Source: Opitutaceae bacterium
GTDB lineage: Bacteria; Verrucomicrobiota; Verrucomicrobiia; Opitutales; Opitutaceae
Length of the DNA stretch: 12,680 bases
NCBI GenBank assembly: GCA_031254955.1
Contig: JAIRTK010000246.1
Location: 1-12,680, forward strand
Direction: 5' to 3'
Position numbers and translations under genes: made by a program. The notes beneath the pieces were generated by a model. The model was not told the DNA's origin, searched no databases, and was given only the letters and a program-made list of their open reading frames with translations. Below, piece by piece: positions 314-12,156 of the stretch (its first letter is position 1; every line of letters begins with the position of its first letter).

Positions 314-3300
314 ATGAAGAACACAAAACGCACCCTCGTCTCCCGCTTTTCCCGCCTGTGCGCGCCGGCGCTCGCCGCCCTCGCGCTCGCGCCGTGCGCC
401 CCGGCGCAGGAGCTGCCGCCGGTCAACGGCGTCTTTAACTTCGACGCGGACATGATGTATGCCCCCGCCGCCTTGCAAGCGCCGGGCGGAAACACCACCT
501 ATAACATCGCCGACGGCGTCACCGTCACCATCGCCAATGCCAACTCGACCGGCAACGGCGGCGTTTTCCAATTGACCAGCGCCCGTGTGTTCACGGTCGC
601 GCCGACCGGCTCGACCGGGCGGCTGGTGTTCCTGAACAACACCACCACCGGCGAGGGCGGCGTGATTTACAGCGGCAAATCCTGGCTGCTCACCAACGTC
701 TCCTTCATCGGCAACTCGACCACCCACAACAACGGCGGCGGCGCGCTCCGCACGCTCGGCGCCGCGTCCCCGACCGTGCTGGACAACGTGTATTTTGAAA
801 AAAACCACGCGCCCACCGCCGGGGCGATCAAGGCCTACAGCGGCATCTCCGTCACCACGGGAACCTTCGCCGGCAATTACGCCGACAGCACGAGCGCGAC
901 GCGCCCGCGCGGGTTTGGCGGGGCGATTCTCTTCCAAATCAGCGGCAACAAACCGCTGAGCGTGCTCCGGGAAAACGTCTTTGCGGACAACTGGTCGGCG
1001 TGGGGCGGCGGCGCCGTCGGGACGTGGGGCAATCACTCGGTCGAGTTCTGGGACACGCCTGCATTCAGCGGCAATTTCACCGGCCTGGGCGGCGGCGCGC
1101 TCCATGACACCGCCAACACCGGCGTCGCCGACGTGGACGGCATCTCGCTCCGGTTCACCGGCACGACCGGCGCCAGCGATTTTGTCTATTCGGGCAACGT
1201 CGCCAAGGGCGCGGTGCTCACGGCGGCGGAAGTCGCCGCGGCGCGCTCCGGCTCCATCGCCTTCACGCCCGCGGCCAAGGGCGGCGGCTTTTATTACTCG
1301 GGCACGCTCAACACCCGCCTCCGCTTCGACCTCGCCGCCGGCGTCACCGTCTCCATCGGCCAGGCCGGCAATCCCTCCTCGTGGGACTCCATCGCGTCGT
1401 CCGACGCCGGCGGCGACACCGGAAAAATTGACCTGACCGGCGCGGGCCGGCTCGTGCTGCACGCCGACAACTCCTACTGGCAGGGCGCGGTCAACCTCAA
1501 CGCCGGCGCCCTGTTCCTCGGCAACCCAAACGCCCGGCTCGGCGGCGCCGTCACCGTCGCCTCCGGCGCGACCCTCGGCGGCTCCGGCACGCTCGTCACC
1601 CGCAGGCAGGACGGCACGGTGGCCGCCGGGCGCACCAGCGTGACGCTCGACGCCGGCGCGACCCTCGCCGTCGGCACCGACACCGCCACGGACGCGGAGA
1701 CGCTCGCCGTGCTCGGCAACGTCACCGCCGGCGCCGGCGTCACCTTCAACCACGACCTCTTCGCCGGCGGCACGGCCAGCAGGCTCAACGTCGCCGGCGA
1801 CCTCGCCCTCGCCGGCCCCGCCACCATCAACATCGGCCTGCTGGCCACGGGCACGTTCACGCTCATGGAGTGGTCGGGCGCGGGCCTCTCCAGCCTCGCC
1901 GGCCTCTCCCTCACCATCGCCGGCGCCGCCGACAGCCCCCGCAGCGACGCCACGCTCTCCCTCGACGGCGGCTCCCTCGTCATCACCAACACCGCCGTCA
2001 ACAACCTCGTCCTGCGCTGGACCGGCGCCGAGGGCGGCGCGACGGGCGGCGAATGGACGCGCCGCCCCACGGGCGCGCAACGCAACTGGGCCGCCGCCGG
2101 CGCGCTGGCCGAGGACCGCTTTTTCAACGCCGACAGCGTCGTCTTCGACGGCGAGGCCGACGCCGACCACCCCGCCAGCCGCGACATCACCATCGAGGCC
2201 GGCGGCGTGGTCGTCTCGGGCATGGAGGTGTCGGGGACGGCGCGTTATGTGTTTCGCGGCGAAGGCGGCATCGAGGCCGATGCCGGCGCGGCGGGCGGCG
2301 CGGCCTTCGCGCCCACGGGCCGGTTGAAAAAAAGCGGCGCGGGCGAGCTGGTGTTTGCCAACACGGGGACCAACACCTTCGCGGGCGGCATCGAAATCGC
2401 GGGCGGCGCGCTGGTCTTTGACCGCGCGGCGCAGCTTGGGGCGGGCGCGGACGGCATCGTGTTTTCCGACTCGGGCACGTTGCGCGCCCTGGCCGCCGTC
2501 GGCGGCACGCTGGCGGAAACCATCGCCATCGCCGCCGGGAAAACCGCCGGGCTGCTGGTGGACGAAGGCGCCGCCCTCGTCCACGGCGGCACGCTCGTCG
2601 CGGGCGGCGCGGGCGCGACCCTGCGCAAGACCGGCGCGGGCGCCGTGCTCCTCATCGGCGCCAACGCGGGCTTCTCCGGCTCGGTCGCGGTGGACGAGGG
2701 CGCGCTCACGCTCGCGGAAACCGCCGCGCTCGGCGGCGCCGTCACCGTGGCCTCCGGCGCGACCCTCGGCGGCTCCGGCACGGCGGGCGCGGGCGGCTCG
2801 GTCAAGGTCGCCGCCGGCGGCATCCTCGACGCCGGCCTCGACGGCGCGCAGGCCGGCACGCTCACCGTGCGCAACCTCGCCCTGGCCGGGGACGCGGTGC
2901 TGCGCCTGGGCTTGTTCACCGCCGCCGACACCGGCGGCTACCTGAAAAGCGACCGCATCCTGGGCGAGGGCACGGCCTCCATCAGCGGCGTCAACAACAT
3001 CAATCTCGCCTCCTTCGCCTCGGGCACGTTCAACCTCGGCAACCTCACCGGCCTCGCCGCGCCCGGCGCCGTGCGCGTGACCCTCAGCGGCATGACGCTG
3101 CTCCCCGACGGGCGGCTCTCGGCGGAACTCGCCGACGCGGGCGGCGTGCTGCGACTGGTCACGACCGCCGACCAGTCCCGCGTGATGACTTGGACGGGCA
3201 GCAGCGGCTCCACTTGGAGCCTCGCGGCGGCAAGCTGGACGGACGGCGGCGCGGTGAACCAGTTCAGCTACGGCGACCGCGTCGTCTTCGACGGCGTCGC

Positions 3301-5929
3301 GGACGCCGCGCAGCCGGGCAGCCGGGACATTTTTGTTGACGCGGAAGAGGTGCGCGTCGCCGACATGACGGTCGGCGGCGGCGAGGATTACACCTTCACC
3401 GGCGGCGGCATCCACGCCGGCGCCGGCAACGTGCAGCCGGACGCGGGCGGCGTCGCCCACATCACCGACGCCACGGGCAAACTGGTGAAAACCGGCGCCG
3501 GCACGCTCACGCTGGCAAACGCGGCCAACACCTTCACCGGCGGCGTCGAAATCGACGGCGGCGTGCTCGCCTTCAGCCGGGGCGACCAGCTCGCCACGCC
3601 GGGCGGCGCGGGCATCGCGTTCCACGGCGGCGGCACGCTCCGGGCGGCGGCGGACTTGGCGCTCGACGCCGCCGTCTCCGTCGCGCCGGGCGTCACCGCC
3701 GTCATCGACAGCGCCGGCCACGCGCTGGCGCTGGGCGGCGCGCTCACCGGCGCGGCGGACTCCGCGCTGGCCAAGACCGGCGACGGCGCGCTCGCGCTCG
3801 GCGCGGACCTCGGCGGCTTTTCCGGCACGCTCGCGGTGCGCGCCGGCGTGGTGCGCGCCGGAGCCGCCGGCCTCCTCACCGCCGCCAGCGACGCCGGCGC
3901 CGTCATCAGCATCGACGCCGGCGCGACCCTCGACCTCGACGGCCACGACCAGACGCTCGCGCGGCTGCAAGGCGCGGGCACGGTCGGGCTTGGCCCGGCC
4001 CGGCTCACGATGGACATCGGCGCCGACACCGGTTTTGCCGGCGGTTTCGCCGGCGCGGGCACGGTCGTCAAGCAGGGCGCGGGCAAGTGGACGCTCTCCG
4101 GCCCAAGCTCGCACACGGGCGGCGTCATCTTGGAGGAAGGCCGGCTCGGGCTGGCCCACAACGAGGCGCTTGGCGCCGGCGCGCTGACGGTCACGGCCCC
4201 CGCCGCCGCGCTGGACATCGAGGCGGACGGGCTGGCCGTGGCCAACGACATCGCGGCGGGGTCAAACACGCTCACCCTCGCGACCCGCGGGCGCGGCGCG
4301 GAGTTTTCCGGGAAAATCAGCGGCGGGCGCCTCGTCATCGAAGGCACGGGCACGCTGGCGCTCTCGGGCAACAACACGGTCGCGTTGGAAATCAACAACG
4401 CCCGCACGATCGCCAAAAGGGCCGAGTCCATCGCCGACGCCGCGGACATCCGCGACGGCTCGGTGCTGGAGTTTCAGGATGTCGGCTCGGGGCAGGTGCG
4501 CGGAAGCCTTCGGGGAGGGCGCGTGCTGTTCACCTCCAGCACGCTGTCCCTCAACGGCGCGAACACCCTGCGGGCCTTCACCGTCGGCGCGGATTCCAGG
4601 ATCACCGCCGCCGCAGTGGACGCGCTCGGCGGGGCGGCGGCGGCGGTCAGGGTCGCGGAGGGCGGCTGGTTGAAAATTGTTTATCCGGGCACGCCGGCGG
4701 GCGGCATGGACGTGGACGGCGGCGCGCTGGTGTTTGCCCCGGTCTCCGGCACGGGCATGAGTTCGGTGGCGCTTTCCGGCGCGTTGAATTTCACGAACGG
4801 CGGCGAAATCCGCCTCGACGGCATCATGCCCACCGGCATCTACACCGCCGCCGTCGCCTACGGCGGCATCCCGCGCCCGCCCGCCTACGACCCGCACCAA
4901 GGCGGCATGTTCATGGTGGCGGACATCGTCAACGGCGACACGCTGCGCGTCACCGCCTACAACAAGGCGCTGGAGCCGGGCAAGGACATCGTCGTCGGCT
5001 TCGATGCCCTGCTCGCGGCCACGCGCGCCGTTTATAGCCACGTCAGCGAGGAGTTCATCGCGCCCTTTTCGGACAAGGCGGCGGGGCCGGACGGACGGGC
5101 GCTCTGGTTCCGCGCCATCGGCTCGTTCGCCGAGTATGGCGACGATGCCGGGCACCTCGGCCACACCGCGGCCTCTTACGGCGGCATCGTCGGTTACGAT
5201 TGGATTTCCAGCCGGGACCTCATGGCCGGCGTTTACGCGGGCTACACCGCCGCCCGTCTGGAAACCACCAACAACGCGACCACCGACATGGGCCTGCCGC
5301 ACTTGGGATTTTATGGCGCGCTCCGGCGGGGAAAGCTTTACGCCGCCGCCGATGTCAACCTCGGCTCCGGCTCCGCCGACACCGTGCGCCGCGAGGACCA
5401 CGGCAACACCGTCACCGGCTCCTATAACCTGGACCACGCCGGCGCCAAGCTTGAGGTCGGCTGCACGGTGCCCTTGTTCGCGCGCGGCAGCCTGCGCCCC
5501 TCGCTCGGGCTGCACTACATGAGCCTCGACTTCCGCCACTACGCCGAGACCGGCCAGGGCGCCGTGCGGCTGGACAACCTGGGCGCCCGCACCGTGCAAG
5601 CCGTGTTCGGCTGCGACGCCGCCAAGGAAATCACGACAGCCTGGGGCCTGCCCGGCATGGTGGACTTGAGCGCGGGCTGGCGCCAGCGCATCCACGCCAA
5701 AATCACCGACGCTTGGGCGACCTTGGTTGCCTATCCGGACGCGCGCCTGCAAATCCGGGGCGACGACTACGATTCCAGCGGAGTGACCGCGGGCGTGGGG
5801 CTGCGCCTGGCCCTCTCGCGCCGGATGCTGTTCGCGCTTGCGTATGACTTCGATTACATTCCGGCGGGCAACCATGACAACGACACCATCCGGCACACTT
5901 TTAATTCCCTCATCCGCCTGAGCTGGTGA
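314..5929 (+). CDS. Giant autotransporter (type Va) with Pmp-like and PATR repeats
   Basis: An 1871-aa self-secreted surface protein. The start is supported by AGAAAGG at 299-305, 8 nt upstream, and by an in-frame TAA at 290-292. Residues 1-31 form a signal peptide (KNTKR basic start, Ala/Leu core, APA cleavage site). Residues 80-330 carry alternating GG[A/V][I/L/V] (115, 142, 202, 232, 260) and FxxN (131, 161, 185, 223, 251) motifs, the pattern of chlamydial Pmp repeats, implying a right-handed beta-helix. About six autotransporter-associated strand repeats follow (near 373, 671, 770, 1057, 1152, 1251; core LxKTGAGxLxL). Two WTG...VVFDG...SRDI modules (569 and 960) reveal an internal duplication of about 390 residues. 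The beta-barrel runs from about 1596 to the terminal aromatic in LSW. No catalytic motif is visible, so the passenger is probably structural or adhesive. Ligand unknown. Confidence 0.93.
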   Translation: MKNTKRTLVSRFSRLCAPALAALALAPCAPAQELPPVNGVFNFDADMMYAPAALQAPGGNTTYNIADGVTVTIANANSTGNGGVFQLTSARVFTVAPTGSTGRLVFLNNTTTGEGGVIYSGKSWLLTNVSFIGNSTTHNNGGGALRTLGAASPTVLDNVYFEKNHAPTAGAIKAYSGISVTTGTFAGNYADSTSATRPRGFGGAILFQISGNKPLSVLRENVFADNWSAWGGGAVGTWGNHSVEFWDTPAFSGNFTGLGGGALHDTANTGVADVDGISLRFTGTTGASDFVYSGNVAKGAVLTAAEVAAARSGSIAFTPAAKGGGFYYSGTLNTRLRFDLAAGVTVSIGQAGNPSSWDSIASSDAGGDTGKIDLTGAGRLVLHADNSYWQGAVNLNAGALFLGNPNARLGGAVTVASGATLGGSGTLVTRRQDGTVAAGRTSVTLDAGATLAVGTDTATDAETLAVLGNVTAGAGVTFNHDLFAGGTASRLNVAGDLALAGPATINIGLLATGTFTLMEWSGAGLSSLAGLSLTIAGAADSPRSDATLSLDGGSLVITNTAVNNLVLRWTGAEGGATGGEWTRRPTGAQRNWAAAGALAEDRFFNADSVVFDGEADADHPASRDITIEAGGVVVSGMEVSGTARYVFRGEGGIEADAGAAGGAAFAPTGRLKKSGAGELVFANTGTNTFAGGIEIAGGALVFDRAAQLGAGADGIVFSDSGTLRALAAVGGTLAETIAIAAGKTAGLLVDEGAALVHGGTLVAGGAGATLRKTGAGAVLLIGANAGFSGSVAVDEGALTLAETAALGGAVTVASGATLGGSGTAGAGGSVKVAAGGILDAGLDGAQAGTLTVRNLALAGDAVLRLGLFTAADTGGYLKSDRILGEGTASISGVNNINLASFASGTFNLGNLTGLAAPGAVRVTLSGMTLLPDGRLSAELADAGGVLRLVTTADQSRVMTWTGSSGSTWSLAAASWTDGGAVNQFSYGDRVVFDGVADAAQPGSRDIFVDAEEVRVADMTVGGGEDYTFTGGGIHAGAGNVQPDAGGVAHITDATGKLVKTGAGTLTLANAANTFTGGVEIDGGVLAFSRGDQLATPGGAGIAFHGGGTLRAAADLALDAAVSVAPGVTAVIDSAGHALALGGALTGAADSALAKTGDGALALGADLGGFSGTLAVRAGVVRAGAAGLLTAASDAGAVISIDAGATLDLDGHDQTLARLQGAGTVGLGPARLTMDIGADTGFAGGFAGAGTVVKQGAGKWTLSGPSSHTGGVILEEGRLGLAHNEALGAGALTVTAPAAALDIEADGLAVANDIAAGSNTLTLATRGRGAEFSGKISGGRLVIEGTGTLALSGNNTVALEINNARTIAKRAESIADAADIRDGSVLEFQDVGSGQVRGSLRGGRVLFTSSTLSLNGANTLRAFTVGADSRITAAAVDALGGAAAAVRVAEGGWLKIVYPGTPAGGMDVDGGALVFAPVSGTGMSSVALSGALNFTNGGEIRLDGIMPTGIYTAAVAYGGIPRPPAYDPHQGGMFMVADIVNGDTLRVTAYNKALEPGKDIVVGFDALLAATRAVYSHVSEEFIAPFSDKAAGPDGRALWFRAIGSFAEYGDDAGHLGHTAASYGGIVGYDWISSRDLMAGVYAGYTAARLETTNNATTDMGLPHLGFYGALRRGKLYAAADVNLGSGSADTVRREDHGNTVTGSYNLDHAGAKLEVGCTVPLFARGSLRPSLGLHYMSLDFRHYAETGQGAVRLDNLGARTVQAVFGCDAAKEITTAWGLPGMVDLSAGWRQRIHAKITDAWATLVAYPDARLQIRGDDYDSSGVTAGVGLRLALSRRMLFALAYDFDYIPAGNHDNDTIRHTFNSLIRLSW
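1538..1591 (+). repeat. Direct repeat, copy 1, inside the giant autotransporter
   Basis: This 54-bp stretch differs from 2729-2782 at one base by my reading. It encodes LGGAVTVASGATLGGSGT at residues 409-426, which recurs unchanged at residues 806-823. The offset of 1191 bp is exactly 397 codons. Confidence 0.85.
2729..2782 (+). repeat. Direct repeat, copy 2, inside the giant autotransporter
   Basis: Second copy of the 54-bp repeat at 1538-1591, in the same reading frame, closing the third PATR repeat. It marks the equivalent point in the second ~390-residue passenger module. Recombination between the copies would keep the frame open. Confidence 0.85.
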
Positions 5930-5966: not shown

Positions 5967-6271
5967 CCGCCGCCATTCGCCAGAGCCTTTCCGTAGCGCA
6001 GGTTTCCAAACCTGCTCGACGGCGCTCCGCGCCGCCCAATCCCCGCAAACTCGAAAGCCTGCGCCACTCCCCATTCCCAACGAAATGATGCCTTCAAGGC
6101 AGGACAGCCCCCCTCCGAGACCGCCGCCATTCGCCAAAGCCTTTCCGTAGCGCAGGTTTCCAAACCTGCTCGACGGCGCTCCGCGCCGCCCAAGCCCGAC
6201 AAACTCGAAAGCCTGCGCCACTCCCCATTCCCAACGAAATGATGCCTTCAAGGCAGGACAGCCCCCCTCCG
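5967..6271. repeat. 154-bp tandem duplication between autotransporter and pfp
   Basis: Two nearly identical units, 5967-6120 and 6121-6271, repeat with a period of 154 bp. Each contains an 8-bp-arm palindrome GCAGGTTT-CC-AAACCTGC (5998-6015; 6152-6169) and then a hairpin CGGCGC-TCC-GCGCCG (6020-6034 and its copy). Each also has CCATTCCCAACGAAATG, which resembles the family 1 terminus. The palindrome GTAGCGCAGGTTTCCAAACC also occurs at 7713-7732, and a variant at 8971-8992, so the unit is made of dispersed repeat parts. It starts 37 bp after the autotransporter stop codon, and its hairpins could act as a transcription end, but no T-tract follows either. No gene is evident. Confidence 0.85.
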
Positions 6272-8940: not shown

Positions 8941-8970
8941 AGCATTTTTCATTTAATCTGTCGCCTGACG

Positions 8971-9121
8971 TAGCGCAGACTTCCAAGTCTGCTTGGCTTG
9001 GGCGGCACCGCACTCCATAAAGCCTCCGGTAGGGAGGCCTCGGAGAGGCCTCCCTACCGGCGCTCCCGTGCCTGCATGACGCCGGCCCGTGCAACCTCGG
9101 TTAGTAACTGAGATTGCGCGG
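8971..9121. repeat. Degenerate palindrome cluster (family 2 and 4 remnants)
   Basis: This stretch holds GCAGACTT-CC-AAGTCTGC (8975-8992), a variant of the GCAGGTTT palindrome seen elsewhere. Next is a strong hairpin with 15-bp perfect arms CCGGTAGGGAGGCCT (9026-9040) and AGGCCTCCCTACCGG (9046-9060), identical in core to the family 4 arms at 12187-12290. Last is CAACCTCGGTTAGTAACTGA near 9094-9113, which looks like a family 2 right end abutting a family 2 left end. No gene is present. From 9122 to 9295 I see only unremarkable AT-richer sequence leading to the promoter. Confidence 0.55.
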
Positions 9122-9295
9122 AAGCAGCCAGATTGTCTGGTCCGGGGAGCGCACGCGTCCCCTCGATTATTTATCTTGAATTTACCTTGACTGCCGCCCT
9201 GTCGTTTTCTTTTTTCATGCCCTTTACCGCGTAAAAACACCCAAGAAAACACATCCGCAACCGAGTCGGGAAAACATAACTTCTTGAAAATGAGC

Positions 9296-9324
9296 TTGAC
9301 TACGACACACGCGGCTAGTATAAA
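9296..9324 (+). promoter_or_regulatory. Near-consensus sigma70 promoter for the second autotransporter
   Basis: TTGACT (9296-9301) and TATAAA (9319-9324) are separated by exactly 17 bp, each one base from the consensus hexamer. Transcription would start near 9331, inside the 8-bp repeat array that begins within the -10 box at 9323. The next plus-strand gene I accept starts at 9670, giving a leader of about 340 nt. This is a sequence prediction only. Confidence 0.7.
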
Positions 9325-9415
9325 GCTCCCAAGCTCCCAAGCTCCCAAGCTCCCAAGCTCCCAAGCTCCCAAGCTCCCAAGCTCCCAAGCTCCCAAGCTC
9401 CCAAGCTCCCAAGCT
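9323..9415 (+). repeat. 8-bp simple sequence repeat (AAGCTCCC) x 11.6
   Basis: Eleven perfect copies of AAGCTCCC run from 9323 to 9410, followed by AAGCT. The first unit overlaps the last two bases of the -10 hexamer. The unit length is not a multiple of three, and perfect copies of this kind are prone to slipped-strand mispairing. The array would be the first transcribed sequence of the autotransporter mRNA. Confidence 0.97.
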
Positions 9416-9669
9416 TTGCGTTCATAGTGTAAATCACTTTTCCGGGGTGTATTGTGCCCCGATGAAACGGCGTGGACAAACTTTCGGATGGAGGGCGGAT
9501 ATCCGCGTCGCCGTTACATGGAAAGAGTCGAATGACGAAACCTGCCACACGGCATTTCCGATGGCAGAGCAGTTTCACCGAAACCACCGCGGATGGCTTG
9601 GCGAGTCGTCCCTGCCTAAGGTCGAGAATTTGTTTGTAACCGGTATAGCACACACACACCGAAATCAAC
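9416..9669 (+). other. Long leader of the second autotransporter
   Basis: About 250 nt between the repeat array and the start codon. It holds a hairpin CGGGG...CCCCG near 9444-9462 and the 12-bp palindrome GCGGATATCCGC (9495-9506). An 80-codon frame from ATG 9447 to a stop at 9689 overlaps the autotransporter start by 20 nt. It has no clear ribosome-binding site and no recognisable protein, so I do not call it a gene, though it could act as an upstream ORF. I found no match to a riboswitch class I know. Confidence 0.4.
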
Positions 9670-12156
9670 ATGACCAAAATGACACGTAAGCATAAACCAC
9701 GCAAAAGCATCTTCGCCAAATGGGCCGCGTTGCTCGCCACCATCGGCGGCATGGCGGCGTTACCATTCAACACCATGGCGGCCAATAAATTGGTCAGTAC
9801 AGGCGAGGACATTGCCGACCCAGGCCCCGTTTTATACGATAACGACGTTAATGCGCATGCCGTGCAAGTGGCGGTCTCAGGCACTTACAACGGCACTAAC
9901 ATTCGGGTCACCTCCACGGTCAATGCGCGGCATGGGGTTTACACCACCGGCGGTAATATCACGCTCAGTTCGGGCACCGTCACCGCCAGCGGCTCGAATG
10001 CGCGGGGAATTTATATTCTTAACTCGTCCACCGTCACCGCTTTGGTCAGTTTAAATCAGCTTGCCATCAAGACCACGGGGGAACTGGGGCATGGCCTTTA
10101 TGTCTCCGCCTCCAGCGTCGCCACCGGCACGTCAGTCACGGTTGTCACGGGTTCGTTGTCTTACGGCATTTTCGCCGCCGCCGCCGGCACCATTGAACTG
10201 GCCCAAACCTCAATCACCACCACGGACGGATATTCTGCGGTCGGCGCCATGTCGGGCGGCGTCATCACCTTGCGGAACACCTCCATCACCGCCAGCGGTT
10301 CTTATTCCAGCGACAACTTGACAGACGGGGTGAGCACCAGTTCCGGCGCGACGATTACTTTGATTGATTCCACTGTTATCACCGCCGGCGGTTGTGGATT
10401 AAGAGTCGCCAATTCCAGCGCCAACCATGACTTTGCCATCATCAATATGACTGGCGGCAGCATTTCCACCGGCACGGGCGCGGCGTTGCAACTGATAAGC
10501 GGCACGATGGAGACGCACGGTCAGATTAATGTCTCGCAAGTGACGATTGATTCCGGTGCTTTGTATCAGACTAACAACAAGAATCCCGACAACGACATTT
10601 CCATTGCCATCAGAGACTCGGATATTTCCAATGCGGGCGGCATTGAACTTGTACCGGATAACAATGGCACGCATGAGATTACCGTCAGCGGCGGCAGCGG
10701 CATCACCGGCGATGTGACCAACAGCGGCAGCGGTGCGCTGACCGTGACCCTCGACCGCACCACCGCGCGCAGCAACATCACCAACAACGGCGGCGGCAGC
10801 ACGACCATCAGCTTGAACAACGACTCGCACGGCACCGGCGGCTGGAACGGCGGCAGCTTGAGCCTGATTGACAACGAGAGCACGTGGAACTTCAGCGGCA
10901 CCAACTCCGTTTTGGACAACGTGCGCAATGACGGCACCATCATCGTTGACGTGAACACCGACACTGGTGCCGGCGGCTCCATCACCGTCACCGGCACCGC
11001 CGGCGGCGCCGGCACCGTGCACATTGACACCACCGGCAACGGCACCCTGCACCCCGACGACGCCCTCAAGGACAAAGTGGCGGGCGACGGCACCGAAAAC
11101 TGGGTTTGGGACCCCATCGACTGGGGCCTCGAAACCGTGCTCAAGGACGGCGAAAACCCCGACGGCACCTCGCACTTCCGCATCGACGGCGCCAGCGCCG
11201 CCGGCGCCGTGCTCAACAGCGCCGTCGTGCTCCAGCAAGCGCTGTGGTTCGCGCAGCAGGACAGCCTCCACAAACGCCTCGGCGACCTGCGCCTCTCCCC
11301 CTCGTCCGCCGGTGATTCCTTTGTATCCAACCTCTGGATGCGCGCCCACGCCCAGCGCCTCAACCTCGACTCCGCCGTCGCCGGCCGCTCCGCCGCCCAA
11401 ACCCTCTACGGCATCGACATCGGCGCCGACAAACCCTGGAAACTCGACACCGGCAGCGCCGCCACCGCCACGCTTCACACCGGCCTCTACCTCGGCCACG
11501 GTCAAAGCACCGCCGACTACAAAACCCCCGGAGCCGAAGCCGAACTCACCACCACCCACGCCGGCCTCTACGCCACCTACCTCCGCGACAACGGCTTCTA
11601 CGCCGACGCCGTGCTCAAAATCGCCAGCGTCGAAAACACCCTCGAAGCCCCCAGCGGCGCGACTCTGCTCAAAGCCGATTACAAAAACCTGAACCTCGGC
11701 GCCAGCATCGAAATCGGCTACCGCTGCCCCCTGCAAAACGACTGGTATATAGAACCCCAACTCCAGCTCGGCTACCTCCATGTCTTCGCCAAAAACTACA
11801 CCGCCGCCGCTCCCGCCGCTCCCCCCGCCGCCCTCCACATCGCCGCCGCCGACATGGACGCCCTCCAGGCCCGCCTCACCCACACTCTCGGCAAAACCCT
11901 CCGCCTCGCCAACGGCAGCGTCCTGCAACCCTACGCGCGCCTCGGCGGCGCCGTGCTCACCAGCACCGGCGGCGAAATCCGCAACGGCTACCAACGTCTC
12001 CGCCCCAACATCGACGGCACCCGCCTCGAAGCCGGCGCCGGCATCCTCTGGCAACTCGGCGCGGCCCACCAACTCCACCTCGACTACGAAGCGAGCTATG
12101 CCGAAGACTACACCAAACCCTGGGGCCTCACCGCCGGCTACCGTTTCCAGTTCTGA
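9670..12156 (+). CDS. Pertactin-type autotransporter (type Va)
   Basis: An 828-aa secreted surface protein. An in-frame TAG at 9646-9648 limits the start to 9670 or ATG 9679; neither has a good ribosome-binding site. Residues 1-37 are a long signal peptide (TRKHKPRK, hydrophobic core, cleavage near TMA-A). Residues 40-480 are Gly/Ser/Thr-rich beta-helix turns such as GGNITLSSGTVTASGSNARG, passing into a pertactin-like tail (LIDNESTWNFSGTNSVLDNV). A helical linker precedes the barrel (QQALWFAQQDSLHKRLGDLR, near 522-541). The barrel spans about 550-828 and ends in YRFQF with the C-terminal Phe expected for BAM recognition. Linker and barrel differ from those of the 1871-aa autotransporter, so the two are not recent duplicates. 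The passenger coding DNA is visibly less GC-rich than the linker and barrel. No protease or lipase motif seen; adhesion is a guess. Confidence 0.92.
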   Translation: MTKMTRKHKPRKSIFAKWAALLATIGGMAALPFNTMAANKLVSTGEDIADPGPVLYDNDVNAHAVQVAVSGTYNGTNIRVTSTVNARHGVYTTGGNITLSSGTVTASGSNARGIYILNSSTVTALVSLNQLAIKTTGELGHGLYVSASSVATGTSVTVVTGSLSYGIFAAAAGTIELAQTSITTTDGYSAVGAMSGGVITLRNTSITASGSYSSDNLTDGVSTSSGATITLIDSTVITAGGCGLRVANSSANHDFAIINMTGGSISTGTGAALQLISGTMETHGQINVSQVTIDSGALYQTNNKNPDNDISIAIRDSDISNAGGIELVPDNNGTHEITVSGGSGITGDVTNSGSGALTVTLDRTTARSNITNNGGGSTTISLNNDSHGTGGWNGGSLSLIDNESTWNFSGTNSVLDNVRNDGTIIVDVNTDTGAGGSITVTGTAGGAGTVHIDTTGNGTLHPDDALKDKVAGDGTENWVWDPIDWGLETVLKDGENPDGTSHFRIDGASAAGAVLNSAVVLQQALWFAQQDSLHKRLGDLRLSPSSAGDSFVSNLWMRAHAQRLNLDSAVAGRSAAQTLYGIDIGADKPWKLDTGSAATATLHTGLYLGHGQSTADYKTPGAEAELTTTHAGLYATYLRDNGFYADAVLKIASVENTLEAPSGATLLKADYKNLNLGASIEIGYRCPLQNDWYIEPQLQLGYLHVFAKNYTAAAPAAPPAALHIAAADMDALQARLTHTLGKTLRLANGSVLQPYARLGGAVLTSTGGEIRNGYQRLRPNIDGTRLEAGAGILWQLGAAHQLHLDYEASYAEDYTKPWGLTAGYRFQF

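What the first reader, a model, noticed from the sequence alone, without database searches (positions are those of the whole stretch)
9296..9415. 8-bp repeat array fused to a promoter: likely phase or level switch for an autotransporter
A TTGACT-17-TATAAA promoter runs straight into 11.6 perfect copies of AAGCTCCC, with the first copy starting inside the -10 box. The predicted transcription start falls in the array. Copy-number change by slippage would alter the initial transcribed region and leader length, and could reset start-site choice or mRNA structure, without touching the promoter hexamers or the coding frame. Repeat-tuned expression of surface proteins is well known in pathogens, but there the repeat usually lies in the coding frame or in the -35/-10 spacer. 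Placement at +1 of a Verrucomicrobiota-like autotransporter is unusual.
Basis: partly seen in the sequence, partly recalled or inferred. Interest (0 to 1): 0.72.

Follow-up and report, generated by a model that had tools for sequence, protein, structure and literature searches.

The report
Expandable 8-bp repeat in promoter-leader family
A little-studied bacterium carries a long run of an eight-letter DNA repeat at the likely start point of a surface-protein gene, inside a control element that recurs in its close relatives and has grown a long run at the same spot at least once more, so it may tune how much surface protein is made.

Summary
In detail: 11.6 perfect copies of AAGCTCCC (9323-9415) begin inside the -10 box of TTGACT-17-TATAAA, 254 nt before an autotransporter gene. 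But it is part of something larger. The promoter region, the array slot and a conserved 50-nt core (9429-9480) form a dispersed element in all three held genomes of this Opitutaceae genus: 11 loci carry both halves; no convincing copy among 35 genomes outside the genus. Nine loci have at most 2.8 octamer copies in the slot; two have 11.6 and 12.4, of different units. In 1.06 Mb of background no perfect array reaches six copies, and in the whole of G002 six CCC at 8-nt spacing occur only in that element. So the slot really expands. Of ten elements with 300 nt or more of downstream sequence, five lead into an autotransporter-like or exported-looking protein and five do not. The placement is not new: in Haemophilus hmw1A the first 7-bp repeat also overlaps the -10 box, and more repeats generally mean less adhesin. 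Best reading: an HMW-like expression rheostat, probably convergent. Variation within a population and any effect on expression are untested; neutral slippage is the main rival.

The parts
9269..9295 (+). conserved upstream stretch of the element, ending TTGAAAATGAGC
   Evidence: inside the match of sequence model R2 (9269-9338, E 1.4e-18; the window was in R2's training set); alignment A3
9296..9301 (+). -35 box TTGACT
   Evidence: read; scan score 10 of 12 together with the -10 box
9319..9324 (+). -10 box TATAAA; its last two bases are the first two of the array
   Evidence: read; the A at position 2 and the last three A of the box are invariant in the 8 elements of alignment A3, which leaves out G2a, G2b and G2d, where the box is absent
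9323..9415 (+). octamer array, 11.6 perfect copies of AAGCTCCC; template strand reads (GGGAGCTT)n
   Evidence: TRF; three exact copies found nowhere else in 57 genomes
9331..9331 (+). predicted transcription start (7 nt after the -10 box); inference only
   Evidence: spacing rule from general knowledge; not mapped
9429..9480 (+). conserved downstream core of the element
   Evidence: model R1, E 7.9e-16 (the window was in R1's training set); alignment A2 of 13 cores
9443..9461 (+). hairpin in the core, 6 pairs, 7-nt loop (weak covariation support)
   Evidence: 84.6% of cells paired; two pairs with changes on both sides, reached by 166 of 500 shuffles; covariation score reached by 2 of 500
9670..12156 (+). 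autotransporter gene, 828 aa
   Evidence: PF03797 E 5.9e-41; 34 proteins at E <= 0.001, P0001 being the query itself

Best explanation
The array is the expanded form of a short octamer slot inside a dispersed regulatory element (promoter region, slot, conserved core) of this Opitutaceae genus, which in at least five of its 11 copies stands in front of a surface or exported-looking protein gene. SHOWN: the element, its recurrence, its conserved order, and long expansion at the same slot in two of 11 copies with different, internally uniform units. INFERRED: transcription starts at about 9331 inside the array, so each slippage step of 8 bp changes the first transcribed bases and the 5' leader, and with them the output of the autotransporter gene, in steps rather than on/off (the array is outside the coding frame and outside the -35/-10 spacer). 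It would work like the hmw1A/hmw2A repeat rheostat of Haemophilus. The direction (more copies, less expression) is taken from that analogue only.
For: Two sequence models that share no columns, core R1 and upstream half R2, hit loci in the same order and strand (layout). The cleanest case is G2d, which was in neither training set: R1 1.0e-9, R2 6.5e-5. Octamer copies: at most 2.8 in nine loci, 11.6 and 12.4 in two. Background: 0 arrays of six or more copies in 1.06 Mb, and 0 in 204 kb of contigs fetched mostly for other autotransporter genes. In G002 the only place with six CCC at 8-nt spacing is element G2b (7 overlapping matches; pattern chosen after seeing the arrays); by arithmetic one random place would fall in its five slots (about 375 bp of 7.82 Mb) with chance about 5e-5. 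Paralogue pair in one genome: G2a 2.1 copies, G2b 12.4, between similar flanks. Downstream genes: autotransporter (C66), PATR proteins (G2c, G2e), BACON/NHL protein (G2b), two exported-looking proteins (G2d; by eye). Same architecture with a measured effect in hmw1A (passages).
Against: No strain pair or read data; the G001 relative of the gene is cut at a contig end, so no allele of this locus could be compared. At the aligned place only 5 of 11 elements score 8 or more as a promoter (C66, C482, C297, C9, G2e); C409, C123 and G2c keep TTG and an A-rich box but score lower; G2a, G2b and G2d lack the -10 box. So the second long array is not at a comparable +1. Of ten elements with 300 nt or more after the core, five have no convincing same-strand gene there: G2a, C9 (next gene at +553, no Pfam family), C482, C409, C123. 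The upstream half was found in none of 20 stretches and contigs fetched mostly for other autotransporter genes, nor in L010-L028, so it is not general to autotransporters.
Confidence: 0.45

Rival explanations
1. Neutral slippage: the element is a real promoter and leader, but the octamer slot is merely a slippage-prone spacer that sometimes expands, with no selected effect on expression.
For: Nine of 11 elements persist with at most 2.8 copies, so a long array is not needed; the two expanded copies do not share one promoter arrangement.
Against: In G000 and G002 the only two true octamer arrays with six CCC both lie in this slot, and other perfect arrays stop at 5.5 copies in 1.06 Mb; a plain spacer need not be special. 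Not excluded.
Confidence: 0.32
2. DNA-structure switch: four or more CCC octamers make the template strand a canonical G-quadruplex motif (GGG every 8 nt) at the start of transcription, so the effect has a threshold at four copies rather than a smooth slope.
For: The motif is present in the two long arrays and in 0 of the 9 other elements. GGGNATC heptamers in Xanthomonas and Nostoc prefer four units, gave CD evidence of quadruplexes and sit on the antisense strand near starts (PMC4692102, abstract and passages).
Against: Any array of CCC octamers gives the motif, so it may be a by-product; no structural test was made; those authors could not identify a role of their repeats in gene regulation.
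Confidence: 0.1
3. Dispersed non-coding element or small RNA gene: the conserved core is the functional product or a mobile repeat, and nearby surface genes are incidental.
For: Five of ten elements with 300 nt or more of downstream sequence have no convincing same-strand gene there; two cores lack the upstream half (C146, C202); three G000 copies share a further downstream module.
Against: No Rfam match above threshold in the window, no terminator-like site between the core and the autotransporter gene, no inverted repeats round the window element within 9000-9700 at 10 nt or more, and the other five precede surface or exported-looking protein genes.
Confidence: 0.1

Closest known systems
hmw1A/hmw2A 7-bp (ATCTTTC) promoter repeats of Haemophilus influenzae
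   Same: Short tandem repeat whose first copy overlaps the -10 box, lies in the transcribed leader of a large adhesin gene, copy number varies (PMC8262952 passages; PMC10127715 and PMC2424069 passages).
   Different: 7 bp, not 8; 9 to 63 copies in the passages seen; a second putative promoter overlaps the far end; two-partner secretion (name recalled), not a classical autotransporter; effect on expression measured there, not here.
uspA2 AGAT repeats of Moraxella catarrhalis
   Same: Repeat upstream of a surface-protein gene, graded effect on mRNA (PMC7302503 passages). The same passages list an 8-bp repeat (GACTGTTT, 2 to 17 units) 25 bp upstream of another gene.
   Different: 4-bp unit, listed 132 bp upstream of the ORF; no dispersed element in the passages I saw.
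GGGNATC quadruplex-forming heptamers of Xanthomonas and Nostoc
   Same: GGG-containing short units, intergenic, often on the antisense strand upstream of genes (PMC4692102 abstract and passages).
   Different: 7-bp unit, spread all over the genome, preference for four units; here octamers in one element slot.
TAACTGA heptamer arrays of Beggiatoaceae
   Same: Short intergenic arrays before genes, proposed as regulatory (PMC4679880 passages).
   Different: Mostly within several nucleotides of start codons, many genes, one unit; here at the promoter, 254 nt upstream.

Membership tests
HMW-type promoter/leader repeat rheostat | tandem repeat whose first copy overlaps the -10 box | tested here: met
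   TATAAA 9319-9324, array from 9323; -10 box predicted, not mapped
HMW-type promoter/leader repeat rheostat | downstream gene is a large secreted surface protein | tested here: met
   PF03797 autotransporter, 828 aa
HMW-type promoter/leader repeat rheostat | repeat lies in the transcript | not testable with these tools
   start site only predicted
HMW-type promoter/leader repeat rheostat | copy number varies at the same locus between isolates or cells | tested here: inconclusive
   no allele of this locus found; only paralogous elements vary
HMW-type promoter/leader repeat rheostat | copy number changes expression | not testable with these tools
   needs reporters or RNA
HMW-type promoter/leader repeat rheostat | common descent with hmw promoters | not tested
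   no comparison with hmw promoters was run; the likeness is taken as convergence because the unit differs and the element was seen in one Opitutaceae genus only
Coding-frame SSR switch | repeat inside the reading frame of the surface gene | tested here: not met
   open frame starts 7 codons before ATG 9670
-35/-10 spacer switch | repeat between -35 and -10 | tested here: not met
   spacer 9302-9318 lies outside the array
Quadruplex-forming repeats | four GGG tracts with loops of 1-7 nt | tested here: met
   template strand of C66 and G2b; 0 of 9 other elements
Quadruplex-forming repeats | folds as a quadruplex | not testable with these tools
   needs CD or footprinting
Invertible promoter | inverted repeats flanking the promoter | tested here: not met
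   9000-9700 has one inverted pair of 10 nt or more, 9026-9041/9045-9060, not flanking it; wider spans not examined
Known RNA leader (Rfam) | match above gathering score | tested here: not met
   0 matches in the window; two at E 3.1 and 3.6 in 9250-9700

The most novel reading that the evidence does not exclude
A genus-wide surface-protein regulon whose members share one dispersed promoter-leader cassette with a built-in mutable octamer slot: any member can acquire its own contingency array there, and once past four CCC units a template-strand quadruplex at the transcription start imposes a thresholded, heritable expression state. That would be a transposable phase-variation cassette in the Verrucomicrobiota, far from the vertebrate pathogens where such switches are best known.
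Probability: 0.14. Interest if true: 0.78.

Novelty: new variant of a known kind. Interest (0 to 1): 0.5.

Why it matters
The repeat-tuned surface proteins in the papers I saw are in pathogens of the human airway. The same promoter architecture with an 8-bp unit, carried on a dispersed cassette in an Opitutaceae genus, would suggest that stochastic surface variation is used more widely, and it offers a natural set of 11 cassettes, from no repeat to 12.4 copies, in which array length could be tied to expression. The habitat of the organism was not established here.

Tried and rejected
Rejected: (1) Array as coding repeat: no plus-strand frame joins it to the autotransporter; minus-strand ORFs run through it (9315-9884 and 8953-9396) but were not tested against families. 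(2) Short upstream peptide from ATG 9290: the start codon is not kept in C409, C297, C123 or G2c. (3) ORF 9447-9689: no Pfam family, and part of it is a dispersed repeat. (4) Phage or plasmid origin: no match for 9160-9680 in phages, none for the G2b element in plasmids, none in two exact-pattern scans of viral contigs. (5) Invertible promoter. (6) Known RNA. (7) Array RNA structure: 9331-9480 folds better than shuffles (z -2.48), the leader 9331-9700 does not clearly (z -0.87); not used.

Limits: the R1 search scored at most 150 and the R2 search at most 123 first-look candidates per genome, so copies may be missed. The G001 listing was cut. G2e is a weak core hit (E 0.016), accepted because R2 hits the same place at 1.7e-11, but G2e was in R2's training set. 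G2a and G2b are weak R2 hits (E 0.036 and 0.084), accepted on strong core hits, but both were in R1's training set. Both models were built from loci first found, directly or through R1, with the window's own DNA. C545:540-607 (R2 E 0.0022) was not counted. On checking the draft I recounted the downstream genes (5 of 10 elements, not 5 of 7, since C482, C409 and C123 also have 300 nt or more) and for that lowered the best explanation from 0.5 to 0.45 and the most novel reading from 0.15 to 0.14, and raised the non-coding rival from 0.07 to 0.1; I also removed a habitat claim that no call supports.

Full report
WHAT IS THERE. The window is the whole contig C66 of a 3.58-Mb, 574-contig, 68.67%-complete genome (G000). 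Its genus has two other held genomes: G001, one of whose contigs agrees in length and match position with a record titled Opitutaceae bacterium isolate Nm470_bin120, and G002, 7.9 Mb in 2 contigs. The array is as reported: 9323-9415, 11.6 perfect copies of AAGCTCCC, its first copy sharing the last two bases of TATAAA (9319-9324), 17 nt after TTGACT (9296-9301). The next gene, 254 nt after the array, encodes an 828-aa autotransporter (PF03797, E 5.9e-41).

A DISPERSED ELEMENT. A DNA search with 9160-9680 over 57 genomes hit only the three of the genus, and some hits broke at the array: pieces before and after it matched elsewhere in the same order. Reading those loci shows a shared module: a conserved stretch with TTGAAAATGAGC, a promoter-like pair, an octamer slot, then a core resembling TTTTCCGGGGCGTATTGTGCCCCGATGAAACGG. 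A sequence-only core model (R1, 10 sequences) searched in 38 genomes gave 12 hits below E 1e-7, all in the genus: 6 in G000, 2 in G001, 4 in G002; ten of these were the training sequences, C123 (1.2e-8) and G2d (1.0e-9) were new. The next hit, E 0.016, is G2e in G002; the best outside the genus is E 0.024. A model of the upstream half (R2, 8 sequences), searched in 38 genomes, gave 8 hits below 1e-10, its training set, and G2d, not in it, at 6.5e-5; best outside the genus 0.0025. Eleven loci carry both halves: C66, C482, C409, C297, C123 (G000), C9 (G001), G2a-G2e (G002). G2a and G2b reach only E 0.036 and 0.084 with R2 but align by eye. Two cores, C146 and C202, have no upstream half.

THE SLOT EXPANDS. 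Octamer copies are 11.6 (C66), 12.4 (G2b), 2.8 (G2c), 2.1 (C297), 2.1 (G2a), 1.9 (C9), 1.5 (G2d); in C482, C409, C123 and G2e the longest repeat found in the interval was not an octamer. G2b's unit is GCTCCCAC where C66's is AAGCTCCC, each uniform through its array, and G2a has similar flanks to G2b with two copies. A variant unit uniform over 12 copies means the array grew or turned over after the variant arose (inference). Background: 80 stretches, 1,061,185 bases of G002 and G000, hold 90 perfect arrays of three or more copies with period 4-20, none of six or more. A whole-genome pattern of six CCC at 8-nt spacing, chosen after the arrays were seen, matches in G002 only inside G2b (7 overlapping matches), and in G000 83 times at nine places: eight are poly-C or C-rich runs, the ninth is C66. 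In G001 it matched 111 times and the list was cut, so G001 is open. C66 is how the family was found, so the independent evidence is G2b.

PROMOTER. The C66 pair scores 10 of 12; a score of 10 or more occurs 51 times in 2.12 million strand-bases. At the aligned place C482, C297 and C9 score 9 and G2e 8. C409, C123 and G2c retain TTG and an A-rich box but fall below my cut. G2a, G2b and G2d have no -10 box there. G2a and G2b instead have a distal TTGACA-16-TATCTT and TTGACG-17-TATCTT, and C409 a TTGATG-16-TATCAT, at -206, -286 and -192 relative to the core. So in G2b the long array would lie inside a leader, not at +1. This weakens any story that depends on the exact +1 position.

DOWNSTREAM GENES. 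Ten of 11 elements have 300 nt or more of sequence after the core (C297 has 215 nt). Five of the ten lead into a surface or exported-looking protein: C66 (autotransporter, ATG at +190), G2b (750-aa BACON/NHL protein, +199), G2c (PATR protein, open frame from +229, running off the fetched stretch after 3,700 codons), G2d (338-aa protein at +134, then a 354-aa one; signal-like N termini by eye), G2e (PATR protein, over 3,100 codons, frame already open in the element, start not determined). Five do not: G2a has only a convergent gene; C9's next gene is at +553 without a Pfam family; C482, C409 and C123 show no convincing gene start before the contig ends. Gene finding was by open frames of 120 aa or more. 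In 20 stretches and contigs fetched mostly for other autotransporter genes, and in L010-L028, the upstream half was not found at E 5 and the best core match was E 0.033.

CORE. A 6-pair hairpin is kept in 84.6% of cells, a level reached by 7 of 500 shuffles; the covariation score is reached by 2 of 500, the number of doubly changed pairs (two) by 166 of 500. I call this weak. Rfam has no match above threshold.

MECHANISM. Shown: element, conserved order, slot expansion. Inferred: start at about 9331, so copy number alters the initial transcript and leader length and thereby output, without changing promoter spacing or reading frame. The precedent is close: in hmw1A the first repeat overlaps the -10 box of P2, the repeats are in the P2 transcript, more repeats lower expression, and which step is affected is still unclear (PMC8262952 passages; the trend is described as general, with exceptions, in PMC10127715 and PMC2424069 passages). 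The template strand of the two long arrays, and of none of the other nine elements, is a canonical quadruplex motif; this could give a threshold at four units, but it follows automatically from any CCC octamer array.

NOVELTY. Searches for Opitutaceae with tandem repeats and promoter (one paper, unrelated by title and abstract start), two of Opitutaceae/tandem repeat/phase variation (303 papers, 15 listed, none of the 15 mentions Opitutaceae) and Verrucomicrobia/autotransporter/termite (two papers, neither about this by title and abstract start) found no description; the library holds open-licence papers only. I file it as a new variant of a known kind: HMW-like by architecture, not shown to be related by descent, and new in riding on a dispersed cassette with a mutable slot.

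Noticed in passing
G000:C482, C409, C123, about 65-400 nt after the core (L091, L092, L090): Three elements share a further downstream module (54 to 195 aligned nt, 73-85% identical); a related stretch lies in G002 sample L104 near 3088-3185, where no core was found.
   Followed up: partly
G2a and G2b (L087, L086) and G000:C409, 192-286 nt before the core: A second, distal promoter-like site, TTGACA-16-TATCTT, TTGACG-17-TATCTT and TTGATG-16-TATCAT, reminiscent of the two-promoter layout of hmw1A.
   Followed up: partly
window 9554-9618: Part of the autotransporter leader is a dispersed repeat with copies in C386, C331 and C302.
   Followed up: partly
window 9026-9060: Perfect 16-nt inverted repeat with 3-nt loop, CCGGTAGGGAGGCCTC; similar sequence recurs after element C482.
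   Followed up: no
window 5967-6271: Two tandem copies of a 154-bp unit, 97% matches, between the first autotransporter-like gene and the phosphofructokinase gene.
   Followed up: no
window 314-5929: A second large passenger-repeat (PATR) protein, 1871 aa, on the same contig; models R1 and R2 report no element before it, though only 313 bases of upstream sequence exist.
   Followed up: no
G000:C545:540-607 (minus): Possible diverged relative of the upstream half, R2 E 0.0022; not counted.
   Followed up: partly
G001:C202 (L096:325-1785, minus): A core without the upstream half lies about 900 nt before a 487-aa exported-looking protein with an oligogalacturonate-lyase-like match (PF14583, E 1.7e-8).
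   Followed up: no
G000:C13:7320-7410, C466:1-75; G001:C299:4904-4974: Very long poly-C runs, one at a contig end, which may be real or assembly artefacts.
   Followed up: no
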